From a virus, in IMG/VR virus record IMGVR_UViG_3300013372_004109, positions 1-38,378 of that record: a DNA stretch of 38,378 nucleotides; one strand, given 5' to 3'. The notes under the pieces were generated by a model. It was not told the origin of the DNA. It did not search any database and worked only from the letters and a program-made list of their open reading frames with translations. How positions within the stretch are numbered: position 1 is the stretch's first letter; each line of letters starts with the position of its first letter. A program made the translations under genes and the position numbers. Of this stretch, positions 2,743 through 8,526 are shown piece after piece.

Positions 2743-4980
2743 TTATTTTATCGTTATTTTTGACACATTATCTGTTTTACTGACAGTCACTATGTTAGTT
2801 CCCCAATCCTTCACCAAGTCATTGTGCGTAATGAAAAATACTATCTCATACATGTCTTTAATCTTATCAAATAGTACTTTAAGCTTCTCTAAGTTGTCTG
2901 GTGCTACTTTACCTAATACTTCATCAAAAGTGATGAAATTAGGCATAGGTAATGTCGACATCTTACCTAATACACATCTTAACGCAAGACTAGCTGCTGT
3001 TTTTTCAAATCCACTACCAGCTTTCAAACGTTTTGTTGTGTCATCTTTTAACATTAAAAATTGAACTTCGTTTTTGTCATCCATGGATATTTCAACATCA
3101 AAATCACAAACATCCTCTAAAAGTCTTTGAACCTCCGAATTTATTATTGGTAAAACTGAACGTAAAACTAATTTACTAATACCTTTCTTACCAACTAAAT
3201 CAATATATATTTTGTAAATTTTATCAACTTCTTCTTCTTTTTTGATAGCTTCAATTAATTTCTCTTTAACATCAATATTGTTAGTGTTTGATTCAATATC
3301 AGAAGTAACTCTACCTATTTTAGACATAGTTTCTGTTTTTGTAACTTCAGCAACTTTAATATCTGTTTTTACCTTAGCAACTTCAGAATCAATTTTTCGA
3401 TTTAACTCAATCGCTTCTAGATTTAAATTATATTTTTTTAAATCATTTGTTTTTGAAGAAAAACTATTTCTTAAAGAACCAATTTCAACTTCAGCCCTAT
3501 CTTTATCTAATTCAAGTCTATTCTTTTCATCAACCAAAACTTTAATTTTATTTAAAGCATCTATTTCATTACCTATAGTTTTAAGGTTATTATCAATTAT
3601 AAATATCTCATCATTTAGTTTTTTGACATCTGATTCATGTTTTGCTATGTGTTCTGAGTTATCTACATCATCTAATTTTCTATTACAGGATTGACATATA
3701 CCGCCAGCTATTAAACCAGTAATAACTTTTTTAATCCTATCAACATCACTTTCTTTTATTGCTTTATCAGTTGTTTGTTTATTTAAATCTTTGGTTAATA
3801 GATAGTGTTTATCTTCATCGAAATCAACTTCACCAATATTAGTAATCTTAAGTTCGATACCAATTTTCTTTTCTTTTAAAGCAACACCTTTAACTTTTAA
3901 ATCAGCAATATCATCTTCTAATTTAGATGGGTTTAATTCAAAGATAGTAACATCAACATTTTCTTTACTGTTAAGTAATCTATCATTTTCAATACTAAGG
4001 TCAGCCATTTCTTTAATAGCATCAGCAAGTGTTTTTTCTAATGTACCTTTTAATTCAGTATTTAATACAATTTTTTCTTTATGGTCAGCAATTTCTTCAC
4101 CCAAAGTTATTACATCATAATTATTTGATTTCTTTTTCTTAGCAAACTCATTATACATACCTCTAACGGCAGCTTCTTTAAGTTCTAGTATCTCTAGACC
4201 TATAAGTCTAGTTAGTACCTTACCAGACTCCGTAGTAGTTAACCCTATTAAATCATCTAAGTTTTTCTCAGTAGCTAATACAAGCATTTCGAAATCTTTC
4301 TCTGTACCTATTGTTTCTCTAAGTTTTTTAGTTGTTTGTTTAGCATCTTCTTCATTCTGCAATTCTTCAGTATCATCTGGAAGTAGCTTATAATAATTTA
4401 ACTTATTAGTAACAGTCCACCCACCACCTTTTTTAGCTGAACGTTTCATTTTACGTTCAATGATAGTTTCCTCACCTTCAATATCAATCATTCCACGTAC
4501 AATCAATTCATTTCTATCAGTATATAAATTGAAGACTTCTTCATTTCTATCTGTTTTTGTAGTAGTACCATGCAACAAAAACTTAATAGCGTCAATAGTA
4601 AGTGTTGTATTATGTGATACAATACCATTGGTATAATATTGATGAACTTCAGCTACTTGAATATCATATAATGTATCTTTAAAATCCATTAAACCTATAG
4701 ATTTTATTTTACTAACACCATCAATTGTTTGTATTGGTAAACCAACATTAGCTTCTTTTAAATGAATAAATTCATCATTTTCATGTTTTAATTTATGATA
4801 ATCAGCACCTTCAACATACATACCATTTTCAAGTTCACATCTATAAACATCAGCATTTTCTTCAGTGATACCACACCACTCAATATCTTTAAAACCGTAA
4901 GGTGTATCAACTTTAAACCCTAAATCTCCGTATTTTTGGTAAATCTCATGTAATTCACCAATTGTAATTTCTTTTATCAT
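2743..4980 (-). CDS. C-terminal split-intein fragment fused to the C-terminal part of gp46/SbcC-like recombination ATPase
   Basis: Residues 1-124 are a C-terminal intein fragment and residues 125-745 are the main body of a Rad50/SbcC/gp46-type ATPase. The body opens TTLTIDAIKFLLHG, completing a P-loop begun in the gene at 6480-7052. Long coiled coils flank a CQSC zinc hook near residue 427. An ABC signature (SGFEKTAASLALR, about 653-666), a Walker B segment (FITFDEVL, about 680) and an H-loop (ITHND, about 718) follow. gp46 works with gp47 in resecting DNA ends during phage recombination. This half lacks the Walker A Lys, so it should need trans-splicing to become an active ATPase. Predicted spliced length is 782 residues against 560 for T4 gp46. 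The start is the only ATG that gives a complete C-intein. Confidence 0.95.
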   Translation of the reverse strand: MIKEITIGELHEIYQKYGDLGFKVDTPYGFKDIEWCGITEENADVYRCELENGMYVEGADYHKLKHENDEFIHLKEANVGLPIQTIDGVSKIKSIGLMDFKDTLYDIQVAEVHQYYTNGIVSHNTTLTIDAIKFLLHGTTTKTDRNEEVFNLYTDRNELIVRGMIDIEGEETIIERKMKRSAKKGGGWTVTNKLNYYKLLPDDTEELQNEEDAKQTTKKLRETIGTEKDFEMLVLATEKNLDDLIGLTTTESGKVLTRLIGLEILELKEAAVRGMYNEFAKKKKSNNYDVITLGEEIADHKEKIVLNTELKGTLEKTLADAIKEMADLSIENDRLLNSKENVDVTIFELNPSKLEDDIADLKVKGVALKEKKIGIELKITNIGEVDFDEDKHYLLTKDLNKQTTDKAIKESDVDRIKKVITGLIAGGICQSCNRKLDDVDNSEHIAKHESDVKKLNDEIFIIDNNLKTIGNEIDALNKIKVLVDEKNRLELDKDRAEVEIGSLRNSFSSKTNDLKKYNLNLEAIELNRKIDSEVAKVKTDIKVAEVTKTETMSKIGRVTSDIESNTNNIDVKEKLIEAIKKEEEVDKIYKIYIDLVGKKGISKLVLRSVLPIINSEVQRLLEDVCDFDVEISMDDKNEVQFLMLKDDTTKRLKAGSGFEKTAASLALRCVLGKMSTLPMPNFITFDEVLGKVAPDNLEKLKVLFDKIKDMYEIVFFITHNDLVKDWGTNIVTVSKTDNVSKITIK
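4609..4980 (-). other. C-terminal split intein fragment (124 residues)
   Basis: Residues 1-124 carry the later intein blocks. A block-B-like segment, GMYVEGADYHKL, lies near residues 53-64. A block-F-like segment, LYDIQVAEVHQYYTNG, precedes block G, VSHN, whose last Asn is residue 124. The next residue is Thr, a permitted +1 nucleophile. The penultimate His and terminal Asn needed for Asn cyclisation are present. The segment VDTPYGFKDIEWCG resembles the start of known C-fragments of atypically split phage inteins such as AceL-TerL. No endonuclease domain is inserted. Confidence 0.93.
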
Positions 4981-4984
4981 TTAG

Positions 4985-5164
4985 TTATTTTTTATGGTAT
5001 TTTGTTTTAATTTTAAATATTTCCCCAGCTTTTTCATATTGTTCCTCTTCAACAAATAGTTTTTCAGCTTCATCACAAATCATTTTTAAACGATTAATTA
5101 TAAATTCTCTAATTTCATCTTGTGTTTTACCTTTAATTTCTTCCAATATTTCTAATTTATTCAT
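4985..5164 (-). CDS. Small 59-residue ORF between the gp46 halves
   Basis: A 59-codon frame starts MNKLEILEEIKGKTQDEIRE and ends KTKYHKK four bases before the ATG of the gp46 C-terminal gene. Its ATG overlaps the TGA of the 76-residue ORF as ATGA, so translation is probably coupled. The product is almost wholly charged and helical. It shows no recognisable domain. The tight coupling on both sides supports it as real. It may be a passenger gene of the homing cassette or a leftover of the insertion. Confidence 0.65.
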   Translation of the reverse strand: MNKLEILEEIKGKTQDEIREFIINRLKMICDEAEKLFVEEEQYEKAGEIFKIKTKYHKK

Positions 5165-5391
5165 ATATTTAAAAATTTTATAAAATCTTGTTTTAATTTT
5201 TCAGCAATTAATATATTTAAATCACTATCTTTAATATAAGAATTAATATTAGCATCACACTCTGGATTAATTCTAAAACTAATTTCTTTACTAAAAATTC
5301 CGTTATCTTCTTTAATAACACCATCTAATACTTTAAAAATAAAATCACCTTGTAATTCTATTTCACCGTTTTTTAATTCTACTTTAATCAT
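5161..5391 (-). CDS. Small 76-residue ORF between the gp46 halves
   Basis: Its ATG (5391) lies inside the last codons of the homing endonuclease gene (8-base overlap), and its stop overlaps the next ATG as ATGA. The first part looks like short beta strands (IKVELKNGEIEL, FIFKVLDG) and the end is helical. There is no membrane segment or known motif. It is either a passenger protein travelling with the endonuclease or a diverged accessory factor. I do not recognise it. Confidence 0.65.
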   Translation of the reverse strand: MIKVELKNGEIELQGDFIFKVLDGVIKEDNGIFSKEISFRINPECDANINSYIKDSDLNILIAEKLKQDFIKFLNI

Positions 5392-6403
5392 ATTTTTTTT
5401 TATTTAAAAAATTTTTACATTTATTTATTATTTCTTCTTTATTTTTTTTATATTCTGAATCCCAAACAACAAATACTTCAAAACCATTATTATTGGCTAT
5501 TAGTGTTTTTTGGTTATCTTTATTCCAGATATCCTTAGCGGTTAAGTCTTTCCTAAACGGATTAGGAAAATCATCAGCATTATACTTATTAGGGTTACCA
5601 TGATAATCATCTCCGTTGTATTCAATAATTCTTTTATTTTTTAAATCAGTGAAATCATATCGATAAAAACTATTATCACCATTCAACACAAATTCGCCAC
5701 CCTTTTTAGCAAACAAGAAATAGTTAGATTCATTAATTTCAATATCTTCTATCAATTTATAAAATAATTCTTGACTTACTTCTGAATAACCAGATTTTAA
5801 TTTACCATTTTTATAAAGGGTTTTTTGCCATTTTACTTGTCTTTCATTAAATTTAACTAATCCTTCTTCTGGTCCATATTTTTCAATACAGGTTTTTAAA
5901 CTAAATGTTCGTTGTCTTTTAGAAACCATTTCTTTACTTTCTTTTTCATCAAAACCTTTATTTAACCAATATTGAATGTTGGCACTTCCAAGTTTACCAG
6001 CGGCACTTCTTTTACCTTCTCGTTCTTCCCATTTATTAACACCTTCTTTTTCACCAAATCTAGTTATACAACCTCTTAAAGAAACCATTTTTTGACCTTC
6101 AATTTGTAGTATCGCTTCTTCTTCGGTATAACCATTTTTAACCCAATATTCAATATTTACTGGTCTTAAAGTTCTAATGTGGTCTTCAATTTTGTTTTCG
6201 TTTAAACCTCTATCTATCCAATATTGTTTTGAATAAGGTGAACCTTTTGGTATTACAATCCCTAAATTTTTTAACCTACTAGTTATAACACTAGGGTCAA
6301 CATTAAATCTTAGTGCTATCTTATTAGTAGATTCAAATTTCTCATTATATAATTTTACCATTGTTTTAATTTCATCATCAGTAAATTGTTTTTTATTACC
6401 CAT
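5384..6403 (-). CDS. Vsr-like (EDxHD-type) homing endonuclease
   Basis: The 339-residue product lies between the two gp46 gene halves. Residues 6-50 look like a helix-turn-helix DNA-binding segment (DDEIKTMVKLYNEKF, then VDPSVITSRLKNLGI). Residues 58-205 contain repeated units built on YWxxxGxxExE and on a segment like SLRGCITRFGEKEG or SLKTCIEKYGPEEG, probably DNA-contacting repeats. The C-terminus is a Vsr-type nuclease fold: YRYDFTDLKNKRIIEYNGDDYH, broken here as YRYDFTDL then KRIIEYNGDDYH, followed by IWNKDNQKTL and FEVFVVWDSE. The E..DxH and WNKD residues fit the EDxHD active site. The family was described with split inteins in 'fractured' phage genes. It probably cuts intein-free or intact gp46 alleles so that the cassette is copied in. 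A TATAAATA element and a 12-bp inverted repeat precede it. Confidence 0.88.
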   Translation of the reverse strand: MGNKKQFTDDEIKTMVKLYNEKFESTNKIALRFNVDPSVITSRLKNLGIVIPKGSPYSKQYWIDRGLNENKIEDHIRTLRPVNIEYWVKNGYTEEEAILQIEGQKMVSLRGCITRFGEKEGVNKWEEREGKRSAAGKLGSANIQYWLNKGFDEKESKEMVSKRQRTFSLKTCIEKYGPEEGLVKFNERQVKWQKTLYKNGKLKSGYSEVSQELFYKLIEDIEINESNYFLFAKKGGEFVLNGDNSFYRYDFTDLKNKRIIEYNGDDYHGNPNKYNADDFPNPFRKDLTAKDIWNKDNQKTLIANNNGFEVFVVWDSEYKKNKEEIINKCKNFLNKKKYD

Positions 6404-6410
6404 TTTAATT

Positions 6411-6446
6411 GTTATATTTATAATTATTATTTACTATAAATATAAC
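6411..6446. repeat. 12-bp perfect inverted repeat before the homing endonuclease gene
   Basis: GTTATATTTATA (6411-6422) and TATAAATATAAC (6435-6446) are perfect reverse complements separated by 12 bases. In RNA this would be an AU-rich hairpin ending about eight bases before the endonuclease ATG, so it could limit translation. Each arm also contains TATAAATA, one on each strand. It lies in the 76-base gap between the N-terminal gp46 gene and the endonuclease, where nothing else is seen. Confidence 0.7.
6415..6422 (-). promoter_or_regulatory. TATAAATA, possible late promoter of the homing endonuclease
   Basis: The minus strand reads TATAAATA 11 bases before the endonuclease ATG at 6403, matching the T4 late promoter core. 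Several T4 homing endonucleases are restricted to late transcription, so the position makes sense. The motif sits in an AT-rich inverted repeat and could be incidental. Confidence 0.35.
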
Positions 6447-6479
6447 CGTTTAATCAAAAAGGTAAAGACAAAGAAATAA

Positions 6480-7052
6480 TTATTTTAGTTCATCTGGTAA
6501 AAACCCTAATTTTTTAATTATTTCATCTTTGTTAAATTGTATATTAACCTTAGTATCAGCTCTAACGCATTTTCCACCCTGGTTTGCTGGAATTGAATTT
6601 ACGATTGTTAACCCTCTCAATTTACTGAATGGGGCATAATTATTTTCACCAAACGATAAAAAATTATCTACCATAACCCATTTGATTGACCATGAACGAT
6701 GTTGTGATTCATTTAAATCAATATTTAATTCACCATTAACTTTATCATCCAACGCTAATATGCGGTTAAAGTCAACTACTTTACCATCTCTATCAATAAC
6801 TTCTTTCATCAAGGCTCTTTGATAGTTAACATCCATAATATTTTCTATACCAGCACCAGATACTTCAATGATATCACCATTGGCATTCTTTTTAATTGCT
6901 TTAAATGTAACGCTAATATTTGTTTTAGGTATTCCATACTTATTTGCAAAGTGATTGATTACTCTTGTTTGATTTGCTCTACTATAATTTTCTGACCTAT
7001 CTAACCATTCTACTTTTACTCTAGAATATGGTGGTATTGTACTATTCGCCAT
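6480..7052 (-). CDS. N-terminal part of gp46/SbcC-like ATPase fused to an N-terminal split-intein fragment
   Basis: The 190-residue product has three parts. Residues 1-121 are an N-terminal extension I do not recognise, rich in charged and polar residues. Residues 122-161 are the start of the gp46/SbcC ATPase head: WSIKWVMVDNFLSFGENN, then LTIVNSIPANQGGK, ending at the Walker A Lys (K161). Residues 162-190 begin with the intein Cys in CVRADTKV. It starts 11 bases inside the coiled-coil gene upstream. Alone it has neither a complete P-loop nor a Walker B. Joining K161 to T125 of the 745-residue protein gives PANQGGKTTLT, a gp46-type P-loop. Intein-type Cys and Asn borders on both halves argue against simple gene decay. 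Confidence 0.94.
   Translation of the reverse strand: MANSTIPPYSRVKVEWLDRSENYSRANQTRVINHFANKYGIPKTNISVTFKAIKKNANGDIIEVSGAGIENIMDVNYQRALMKEVIDRDGKVVDFNRILALDDKVNGELNIDLNESQHRSWSIKWVMVDNFLSFGENNYAPFSKLRGLTIVNSIPANQGGKCVRADTKVNIQFNKDEIIKKLGFLPDELK
6483..6569 (-). other. N-terminal split intein fragment (29 residues)
   Basis: The last 29 residues begin with Cys in a block-A-type motif (CVRADTKVNI) and end FLPDELK. Typical split inteins have about 100 residues here and include block B, whereas this piece stops before it. Block B lies instead in the C-fragment. Together the two fragments make 153 residues, a normal mini-intein size. The layout matches the atypical class with N-fragments of about 25-40 residues. 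Confidence 0.92.
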
Positions 7053-7482
7053 AAATGTCTCTTTTCTTTTTGTTTTTTTCTTCTGTTAATTCTTTTTCAA
7101 GTTCTTTGATTTTTGCATCTAAGAAACCATTTTTTTCAGTTTCAGCTTTAAGTTTTTCATTATTATCCTTATCCAATTGAGTTAATCTAGCAATCTCATC
7201 AGTTAATTTCTTGTTACCTTTATTATCTGAAACCATAACTTTCTTTTCAACCACTTTTTCAACTTCGATAATTTTCTCAACTTCGACTATCTTTTCAACC
7301 TCGACTATTTTCTCAACTTCCACTACTTTTTCAATTACATTTGGTGTGGCACCAAATTTTTCCACAGTAAATCCTTGTTTAATTAGATTTACTGTGAATT
7401 CATCAATATTGGTAATTTTATTGGCTCTGCAATAATCCCAAATATCATCTTGTATTTTACTCGGTATCTCCATCTTCATCAA
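7042..7482 (-). CDS. Coiled-coil protein with VEKIVE repeats
   Basis: The 146-residue product begins with a small helical segment (about 5-45, IPSKIQDDIWDYCRANKIT), followed by five copies of a six-residue repeat close to VEKIVE (residues 50-79). A long charged coiled coil (about 92-140) ends in a Lys-rich tail. It has no signal peptide. The gene overlaps the 85-residue ORF before it and the gp46 N-terminal gene after it, so the three are probably co-translated with gp47. It could be a scaffold or DNA-associated protein, but that is only a guess. The starts at 7482, 7479 and 7473 are all possible. Confidence 0.8.
   Translation of the reverse strand: MMKMEIPSKIQDDIWDYCRANKITNIDEFTVNLIKQGFTVEKFGATPNVIEKVVEVEKIVEVEKIVEVEKIIEVEKVVEKKVMVSDNKGNKKLTDEIARLTQLDKDNNEKLKAETEKNGFLDAKIKELEKELTEEKNKKKRDIYGE
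7246..7335 (-). repeat. Five 18-bp units encoding VEKIVE
   Basis: Five in-frame 18-base units encode IEKVVE, VEKIVE, VEKIVE, VEKIIE and VEKVVE. Units differ mostly at synonymous or Ile/Val positions, which suggests old duplication held by selection. Slippage could change the copy number without breaking the frame. Confidence 0.85.
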
Positions 7483-7714
7483 AGTTTAATTGTTCCAAAT
7501 CTCCTAACAAAATATTTTTCACATCTTCGTCAGTTTGATGAAGAAATTGCACATCATTGGTTTTCTGGTCAACATAAATAGTCATAATTGAATTATTTTT
7601 CATTATGAATGTATTTCCATCTTTATCCAAACAAAACTCACCATTTACCGCTTCAAAATGGTCCATGTCTTCAGGTATTGAATTTACAAATACTTTTAAT
7701 TCTTTTAGTGTCAT
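7457..7714 (-). CDS. Unidentified small acidic protein (85 residues)
   Basis: It starts at the stop of the gp47-like gene as TAATG, which implies coupled translation. The product is acidic, ending DEDGDTE, and seems to form an alpha/beta fold, with strands such as NTFIMKNNSIMTIYVD in its middle. No known domain is evident. It is probably a small accessory protein of the recombination operon, but the sequence does not show its role. Confidence 0.75.
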   Translation of the reverse strand: MTLKELKVFVNSIPEDMDHFEAVNGEFCLDKDGNTFIMKNNSIMTIYVDQKTNDVQFLHQTDEDVKNILLGDLEQLNFDEDGDTE

Positions 7715-8526
7715 TATAAATTTGTTATTATTTCTTTCCCTTCTTCTAAATCTTCAAGGGAACTTATTTTAAATTTGTAGAACGGTGAATCATTTTCAAC
7801 ATCATGTTCTGTAAATGTTTTTGTTTCAATATCCCATAGTAAAAAACCATGTTTGGTAACGTTTTCACCAAAGTTTTGTTGAATCAAAGAACTAGGATAT
7901 GCAATTATTGTGCCTTTGTGATTAAATGTTTGTCTTTTGTGAATATCACCAAGCATTACCATATCGCACCCTTCAAATATCTCCAAACCTGCTCCATGGT
8001 CAATTTCATACCCAATGTCTGTCTTAGCGTTTATAAGGGCAGCATGGTATAATCCAATATATGACTTGTCATCACCAAATTGTGCTCTAGCCGCTTCAAT
8101 ATTAGGTCTTTCATTCTCTTCAAAGATTGAATAAACACACCAGACAATATTATTATCCAAATAACACTTAGATTCTTTGAAATAATTAATTTCTTTATCT
8201 GGTAAGAATTGAACCATCGGTGTTATTGAATCCATACGGTCTTTATTATTCTCTAAAAGGTCATGATTACCTGCAATAACAACCACACAACCAAATTCTT
8301 CTAATTTACGTAAAAACCATGTCCCTAACAATAATTGTTCGTTAGAGATAACTATTTTTTGATGAACCAAGTCACCAGCAACAACTATTCTAACTTCTTC
8401 CCTTTTATACTCAGCTAACAAATCAGTTAGGTCTGAAAACAACTTGATGAATACAGTTTTGTATTCATCATGAAGTCTCATTGTTCTGATGTGTATATCA
8501 GCTAAATGTACTATTTTTCTTATCAT
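7714..8526 (-). CDS. gp47/SbcD/Mre11-like nuclease subunit
   Basis: The 270-residue protein carries the calcineurin-type phosphoesterase motifs of Mre11/SbcD in order: LADIHIR (Asp10, His12), AGDLVHQ (about 50-56), AGNHDLLE (Asn87, His88) and LGDIHKRQ (about 193-200). These residues bind two metal ions for DNA exonuclease and endonuclease activity. Its length is slightly less than T4 gp47 (339), with a short C-terminal capping region. It should pair with the gp46-like ATPase encoded downstream, to resect ends and start recombination-dependent replication. It begins at the stop codon of the Dda-like helicase gene as TAATG, so both are likely made from one mRNA. Confidence 0.93.
   Translation of the reverse strand: MIRKIVHLADIHIRTMRLHDEYKTVFIKLFSDLTDLLAEYKREEVRIVVAGDLVHQKIVISNEQLLLGTWFLRKLEEFGCVVVIAGNHDLLENNKDRMDSITPMVQFLPDKEINYFKESKCYLDNNIVWCVYSIFEENERPNIEAARAQFGDDKSYIGLYHAALINAKTDIGYEIDHGAGLEIFEGCDMVMLGDIHKRQTFNHKGTIIAYPSSLIQQNFGENVTKHGFLLWDIETKTFTEHDVENDSPFYKFKISSLEDLEEGKEIITNL

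What the first reader, a model, noticed from the sequence alone, without database searches (positions are those of the whole stretch)
5384..6403. Vsr-like homing endonuclease placed between the two gene halves
The C-terminal domain has EYNGDDYH and IWNKDNQK, the EDxHD-type active site described for endonucleases that sit in fractured phage genes. As a free-standing gene flanked by split intein halves, it would target gp46 genes lacking the cassette. The internal YWxxxGxxExE units look like a repeat-built DNA reader, which may give long specificity.
Basis: partly seen in the sequence, partly recalled or inferred. Interest (0 to 1): 0.72.

Follow-up and report, generated by a model that had tools for sequence, protein, structure and literature searches.

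The report
Homing endonuclease in fractured phage gp46
A selfish DNA-cutting gene sits inside a phage DNA-repair gene that is cut in two exactly in its ATP-binding loop, flanked by halves of a split intein that should rejoin the protein; dozens of related phages carry the same gene uncut, which points to a mobile element, of an already described general type, that spreads by inserting itself into intact copies.

Summary
Window 5384-6403 (minus) encodes a 339-aa protein: N-terminal helix-turn-helix, two and a half YW..G..E repeats, and a Vsr-type nuclease domain (model vs Vsr Z 11.1, vs I-Bth0305I Z 10.2) with conserved D250/E261/D265/H268/D296. It lies between halves of gp46 (SbcC-like) split between the Walker A Lys and Thr codons; the halves carry a 29-aa IntN and a 124-aa IntC. 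Among 60 distinct gp46 alleles, 45 are empty, 12 have split intein plus endonuclease, 1 a split intein without it, 2 a continuous mini-intein. The window's nearest relative is empty (95% aa). Window and L001 endonucleases differ far less at synonymous sites (dS 0.31) than their gp46 (1.3-2.0): horizontal transfer. The arrangement is known (fractured genes; annotated Vsr gene in split polB of Aeromonas phage Aes517), so this is a new member of a known kind. New here: gp46 as host (none found in the literature searched); relatives in P-loops of ClpB-like, TerL, DnaB and RecA genes with different N-terminal domains and apparently exchanged nuclease domains; and a conserved leader predicted to hide the start codon. 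Cutting and splicing remain unproven.

The parts
6570..7052 (-). gp46 N-terminal extein (residues 1-161, ends ...PANQGGK, Walker A lysine)
   Evidence: 44-95% identical N-terminal part of intact gp46 in related phages
6483..6569 (-). IntN, 29 aa (CVRADTKVNIQFNKDEIIKKLGFLPDELK), followed by stop 6480-6482
   Evidence: Cys1 and length of 29 aa kept in all 13 split alleles
6404..6479 (-). Leader between IntN stop and endonuclease start; conserved TTTACCTTTYTGRTTA..GGTTATATTTAT; predicted hairpin that covers the start codon
   Evidence: no covariation support
5384..6403 (-). Vsr-like homing endonuclease gene, 339 aa
6254..6403 (-). N-terminal helix-turn-helix (residues 1-50), found only in gp46-site copies
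   Evidence: Pfam HTH_7 0.0018 below cut-off; model match to HTH proteins; distribution
5822..6229 (-). Repeat region, residues 59-194: half unit 59-83, full units 84-135 and 143-194
5387..5791 (-). Vsr-type nuclease domain, residues 205-339; D250 5654-5656, E261 5621-5623, D265 5609-5611, H268 5600-5602, D296 5516-5518
5161..5391 (-). Passenger ORF, 76 aa, overlaps the end of the endonuclease gene; no relatives found
4988..5164 (-). Passenger ORF, 59 aa, overlaps the stop of the 76-aa ORF
4609..4980 (-). IntC, 124 aa, ends ...GIVSHN
   Evidence: Pfam Intein_splicing 0.0019, below cut-off; His-Asn end in all 15 intein alleles
2743..4608 (-). gp46 C-terminal extein, starts TTLTIDAIKF (Thr +1)
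   Evidence: phrog_77, 7.6e-35
7714..8526 (-). gp47 (SbcD-like), partner of gp46; context only
   Evidence: phrog_100, 9.4e-22

Best explanation
The ORF is a free-standing Vsr-fold homing endonuclease carried by a mobile cassette (IntN, leader, endonuclease, passenger ORFs, IntC) inserted between the Walker A Lys and Thr codons of gp46. Its helix-turn-helix and repeats are taken to read gp46 P-loop DNA, and its C-terminal domain to cut an uninterrupted allele; repair from the cassette-bearing genome copies the cassette in, and the insertion destroys the target. The two polypeptides should trans-splice through a short-IntN split intein and restore gp46. Shown here: anatomy, fold, exact insertion point, empty alleles, horizontal transfer, purifying selection. 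Inferred: cleavage and where it falls, trans-splicing, delayed expression through the leader hairpin.
For: Fold: residues 205-339 match Vsr 1cw0 (Z 11.1) and I-Bth0305I 3r3p (Z 10.2, 96 of 97 residues); a profile of 25 nuclease domains finds 3hrl (0.001) and 3r3p (0.008) in the PDB; catalytic-type residues conserved. Site: the same codon boundary in all 15 intein-bearing alleles; 45 empty alleles, the nearest at 95% aa. Mobility: at least 12 state changes on the gp46 tree; L041 occupied vs L052 empty dS 0.08-0.09; window vs L001 gp46 dS 1.29-2.04 but endonuclease 0.31, IntN 0.20, IntC 0.59. Selection: endonuclease dN/dS 0.19, gp46 0.04-0.13 against the nearest empty allele. Intein Cys1, block B His, His-Asn end and Thr+1 kept in all 15. 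The helix-turn-helix form of the endonuclease is found only at gp46.
Against: No cutting or splicing data. Single occupied/empty pairs could be losses by recombination rather than gains. Co-conversion next to the site is only suggestive: 9 differences from L010 in the first 51 bases to the right, then almost none, but no donor allele was identified and other stretches vary too. Pfam matches are below cut-offs. The repeat region of the model has low confidence.
Confidence: 0.87

Rival explanations
1. The endonuclease is a passenger that landed between already split gp46 halves and has its target elsewhere; the split intein is independent of it.
For: One allele (L011) has the split intein without the endonuclease and two have a continuous intein without it. 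Related nuclease domains occur outside split genes (L150, L152, L163).
Against: All 12 copies with the helix-turn-helix N-terminus lie in this one site. Cassette parts share low synonymous divergence. L011 keeps part of the conserved leader and its intein groups with that of L001, which fits loss of the endonuclease.
Confidence: 0.07
2. gp46 is inactivated here: a decaying gene with dead intein pieces and a stranded endonuclease gene.
For: Gene split into two ORFs with extra small ORFs between them.
Against: Both halves and the endonuclease are under purifying selection, open reading frames are intact, and intein catalytic residues are invariant in 15 alleles.
Confidence: 0.02
3. The insert is a self-splicing intron with its endonuclease, not an intein.
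For: Homing endonucleases with Vsr-type domains were first characterised from an intron (3r3p is deposited as a mobile intron protein).
Against: No Rfam match in 4500-7600 at E up to 0.5; both sides encode intein pieces that form a continuous mini-intein in L013 and L015.
Confidence: 0.01
4. The protein is a cellular-type Vsr mismatch-repair or anti-phage nuclease rather than a homing enzyme.
For: The top structural match is E. coli Vsr (Z 11.1), although Z differences below 1 from I-Bth0305I are ties.
Against: Sporadic distribution locked to one codon boundary, empty alleles and horizontal transfer. Vsr itself lacks the helix-turn-helix and repeats (family knowledge).
Confidence: 0.03

Closest known systems
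Fractured genes with split inteins and a free-standing endonuclease of a new family (Dassa et al. 2009, NAR 37:2560; known here by title and citations only, paper not held)
   Same: Gene in two ORFs, intein halves at the inner ends, endonuclease gene between them
   Different: Host gene here is gp46, split in the P-loop; IntN is very short; whether gp46 or this split site was in that paper could not be checked
Split polB of Aeromonas phage Aes517 (JN377904), with annotated N-intein, 'putative VSR endonuclease', C-intein
   Same: Same order; its endonuclease is a relative of the window's (38.8% over residues 201-318)
   Different: Different host gene; the related Aes123 PolB1 intein is cysteine-less (PMC11923092), the gp46 intein begins with Cys
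I-Bth0305I (EDxHD family; 3R3P)
   Same: Nuclease fold, Z 10.2 over 96 of 97 residues
   Different: Low identity (19%); deposited as a mobile intron protein; the weak sequence alignment has no His at H268
Vsr mismatch endonuclease (1CW0, 1VSR)
   Same: Nuclease fold, Z 11.1; equivalent Asp and His in the profile alignment
   Different: 14% identity; no helix-turn-helix or repeats; function unrelated to homing
Atypically split inteins with short IntN (AceL-TerL, GOS-TerL)
   Same: Split near the N-terminus with a long IntC; published IntN about 15-25 aa (PMC11923092), here 29
   Different: Terminase hosts there, gp46 here
T4 I-TevI and Aeh1 mobE regulatory hairpins (PMC2988022)
   Same: Predicted RNA hairpin covers the endonuclease start; a late-promoter-like TATAAATA lies within it in the window (6415-6422)
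   Different: Prediction only; different nuclease family; the TATAAATA motif is not kept in all cassettes

Membership tests
Fractured gene with split intein and endonuclease | Gene split into two ORFs whose homologues are single genes | tested here: met
   45 distinct intact gp46 alleles
Fractured gene with split intein and endonuclease | Complementary intein halves at the inner ends | tested here: met
   IntN 29 aa, IntC 124 aa; fused in L013 and L015
Fractured gene with split intein and endonuclease | Free-standing endonuclease gene between the halves | tested here: met
   12 of 13 split alleles
Fractured gene with split intein and endonuclease | Trans-splicing restores the protein | not testable with these tools
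   Catalytic residues conserved; no assay
EDxHD / Vsr-like homing endonuclease (I-Bth0305I) | Vsr-type nuclease fold | tested here: met
   Z 10.2 to 3r3p, 11.1 to 1cw0
EDxHD / Vsr-like homing endonuclease (I-Bth0305I) | Detectable sequence relation to I-Bth0305I | tested here: inconclusive
   Profile E 0.008 to 3r3p; not found with the gp46-only alignment
EDxHD / Vsr-like homing endonuclease (I-Bth0305I) | The family's E, D, H, D catalytic positions | tested here: inconclusive
   E261, D265, H268, D296 conserved, but the defining papers were not readable and 3r3p shows no His in the alignment
EDxHD / Vsr-like homing endonuclease (I-Bth0305I) | Tethered N-terminal DNA-binding region | tested here: met
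   Helix-turn-helix 1-50 and repeats; DNA binding itself not tested
Homing endonuclease (any family) | Empty target alleles and transfer between lineages | tested here: met
Homing endonuclease (any family) | Site-specific double-strand cleavage of the empty allele | not testable with these tools
   Needs purified protein
Homing endonuclease (any family) | Co-conversion of flanking markers | tested here: inconclusive
   Differences clustered next to the right junction against L010, no donor identified
Atypically split intein | Short IntN (about 15-25 aa) and long IntC | tested here: met
   29 and 124 aa; range from PMC11923092, so slightly longer
Start-codon-sequestering hairpin (I-TevI, mobE type) | Conserved structure that occludes the translation start | tested here: inconclusive
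   11 of 12 leaders fold with z -1.8 to -5.2 and the window's start is the least accessible of 28, but no consensus fold or covariation

The most novel reading that the evidence does not exclude
This is one branch of a phage homing-endonuclease family specialised on the Walker A motif of P-loop genes (gp46, ClpB-like, TerL, DnaB, RecA/UvsX), in which target-specific N-terminal readers keep exchanging near-interchangeable Vsr-like nuclease domains, the endonuclease is held back by a start-hiding leader hairpin, and gp46, likely part of the machinery that repairs the cut, is itself made dependent on the element's splicing.
Probability: 0.35. Interest if true: 0.68.

Novelty: new member of a known kind. 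Interest (0 to 1): 0.5.

Why it matters
Empty, split-with-endonuclease, split-without and fused alleles coexist at one codon boundary in related phages, including pairs that differ by a dS of about 0.1, so gain and loss of a split intein can be studied in one gene. The wider family offers material for asking how long-site nucleases change targets, because N-terminal readers and nuclease domains appear to be recombined between endonucleases of different genes. The short IntN is of practical use for protein ligation. The site, the ATP-binding loop of a recombination protein, makes the host gene's activity depend on splicing.

Tried and rejected
A PDB sequence search with the 8 gp46 endonucleases found no nuclease match; a broader nuclease profile was needed. 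Rfam gave nothing. RNAalifold on the leader gave no consensus, and a fixed-register count of TTTACC against GGTAAA gave no covariation; my first impression of a compensatory change in L047 holds only if the helix shifts by one base, so it is not claimed. I first read L011 (split) and L013 (fused) as an in-place conversion because their gp46 are sisters (dS 0.18-0.25); their IntC differ at dS 1.68, so they are separate acquisitions and no direction between split and fused is claimed. Co-conversion: suggestive, not shown. I first equated the match in Pseudomonas phage MIJ3 with the polB intein reported in PMC6892783; it is a different gene, lying between recA-like halves. A genome-contig scan gave one distant relative, not in a split gene. 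The passenger ORF had no relatives among phages. That the inteins are more alike than the exteins in 104 of 105 pairs was not used alone as evidence of transfer, because inteins may simply evolve more slowly; synonymous distances were used instead.

Full report
WHAT IS THERE. On the minus strand the window reads gp47 (7714-8526), two small genes, gp46 N-half (6480-7052), the endonuclease (5384-6403), two small ORFs, gp46 C-half (2743-4980). The C-half matches the phage SbcC-like family phrog_77 at 8e-35, and the upstream gene matches phrog_100, SbcD-like. The N-half ends in ...SIPANQGGK followed by CVRADTKVNIQFNKDEIIKKLGFLPDELK and a stop; the C-half starts with a 124-aa segment ending GIVSHN and continues TTLTIDAIKF. 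The break is therefore between the Walker A lysine and the following threonine.

ALLELES. Scans of IMG/VR gave loci with the N-half and the C-half. After removing duplicates, 60 distinct gp46 alleles were classed by what lies at the junction: 45 nothing, 12 split intein plus endonuclease (window included), 1 split intein with only about 0.1 kb between the halves (L011), 2 continuous inteins of 147 and 151 aa (L013, L015). The nearest relatives of the window's gp46, L010 and L012, are 95% identical in protein and uninterrupted; their DNA shows an insertion exactly at GGAAAA|AC. All intein-bearing alleles keep Cys1, the block B histidine, the His-Asn end and Thr+1.

MOBILITY. On the gp46 tree the empty and occupied states need at least 12 changes. 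L041 (occupied) and L052 (empty) differ by dS 0.08-0.09; window and L010 by 0.22-0.39. Between window and L001 the gp46 parts differ by dS 1.29-2.04, yet the endonuclease by 0.31, IntN by 0.20 and IntC by 0.59, and stretches of the endonuclease DNA are 98-100% identical. The cassette therefore moved between lineages after their gp46 genes had diverged. An endonuclease dN/dS of 0.19 indicates purifying selection. Gain by homing is the simplest reading, but single occupied/empty pairs could also be losses by recombination.

THE ENDONUCLEASE. The AlphaFold2 model, from 8 gp46-site sequences, has mean pLDDT 77; most of residues 10-60 and 250-330 are confident, the repeats are not. Residues 205-339 match Vsr (1cw0, Z 11.1, 112 residues) and I-Bth0305I (3r3p, Z 10.2, 96 of its 97 residues); residues 1-50 match helix-turn-helix proteins. 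A profile of 25 diverse nuclease domains finds 3hrl (E 0.001), 3r3p (0.008) and Vsr (0.065) in the PDB. D250, E261 and H268 are invariant, D265 and D296 nearly so. The middle has two full units of about 52 aa and a half unit.

RELATIVES IN OTHER GENES. The same nuclease module lies between halves of other genes split in the P-loop: a ClpB-like protease (phrog_4871; GVGK|C), terminase large subunit (phrog_5989; GK|C) and DnaB helicase (phrog_19; GK|C), whose C-halves resume after HN at Ser or Thr. In cultured Pseudomonas phage MIJ3 a related gene lies between recA-like halves, GESG|C...HN|SGKS. In Aeromonas phage Aes517 a 'putative VSR endonuclease' is annotated between N-intein and C-intein pieces of polB. 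MIJ3's polB also has a reported split intein (PMC6892783). Insertion between the P-loop Lys and Thr is described as a classic intein site (PMC5050341). The N-terminal part differs by host gene: helix-turn-helix at gp46; a ROS/MUCR-type zinc finger in terminase-associated copies (L127 above the Pfam cut-off); another domain in the ClpB-like ones. The nuclease domain does not follow the host gene: L041 (gp46) is 85% identical there to L125 (ClpB-like) but 51% to the window (gp46), whereas in the repeat region it is 69% identical to the window and 48% to L125; a single clade of gp46 nuclease domains is rejected (AU p 0.0003; groups named by site). This suggests exchange of nuclease domains among endonucleases with different targets. 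The repeats are more alike among most gp46 copies than to those elsewhere, which fits a role in recognition, but as they are shared across host genes they cannot alone define the target.

LEADER. Between the IntN stop and the endonuclease start all 12 cassettes share TTTACCTTTYTGRTTA...GGTTATATTTAT with few changes, although neighbouring coding DNA is highly diverged. An exact copy of the first half occurs nowhere else in the window, and in the loci only in these cassettes. Eleven of 12 leaders fold more stably than most shuffles (z -1.8 to -5.2, window -3.97; L022 is the exception at +1.1) and pair the start-codon region; the endonuclease start is the least accessible of 28 gene starts examined in the window. 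T4 I-TevI and Aeh1 mobE are held back early in infection by such hairpins (PMC2988022). No covariation supports one common pairing, so the element may instead be conserved as a promoter or operator.

VERDICT. A homing endonuclease in a fractured gp46, of a kind already described. The host gene, the allele series at one site, the P-loop family with exchanged nuclease domains, and the leader are what this adds. The defining papers of the family (Dassa 2009; Taylor 2011) could not be read in this library, so priority for gp46 is not certain.

Noticed in passing
L159 2564-5570 (Pseudomonas phage MIJ3, LR588166.1 41986-44992): recA-like gene split inside its P-loop (GESG|C...HN|SGKS) with a 477-aa relative of the window's endonuclease (MIJ3_00050) between the halves; annotated as hypothetical protein and RecA, and not the polB intein that the MIJ3 paper reports. 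Matching records exist in 11 or so Pseudomonas phages.
   Followed up: partly
L122-L125, L128-L130, L144, L145; L004-L007: ClpB-like ATP-dependent protease genes of related phages are split at GVGK|C with the same kind of endonuclease between the halves; in L004-L007 only a 91-aa remnant of the endonuclease is left.
   Followed up: partly
L129 3797-8357 and L151 4337-6502: Signs of a second intein in the same gene: the L129 Clp N-half begins with an IntC-like segment, and the L151 terminase C-half runs into another IntN-like segment after LLFIDEC (Walker B).
   Followed up: no
window 4988-5391; L113 7010-7522; L144 6971-7601; L145 6984-7567: Cassettes carry different small passenger ORFs between the endonuclease and the IntC half; the window's two have no detectable relatives.
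   Followed up: partly
phrog_22677: PHROG family of unknown function that the endonuclease matches at 5e-30; this evidence suggests it is a Vsr-like nuclease family.
   Followed up: no
window, whole: TATAAATA, the T4 late promoter core as recalled, occurs 27 times against 16.9 expected (0 of 100 shuffles as high), on both strands.
   Followed up: no
window 7042-7482 (minus): ORF between gp47 and gp46 with a VEKIVEVEK-type repeat, present in relatives with variable sequence.
   Followed up: no
L001 3395-3613; L013 5872-6087: A second, distant Vsr-like nuclease domain (32-35% identity) upstream of gp46; in L001 it lies where gp47 is interrupted (gp47 pieces at 2024-2641 and 3693-3881).
   Followed up: no
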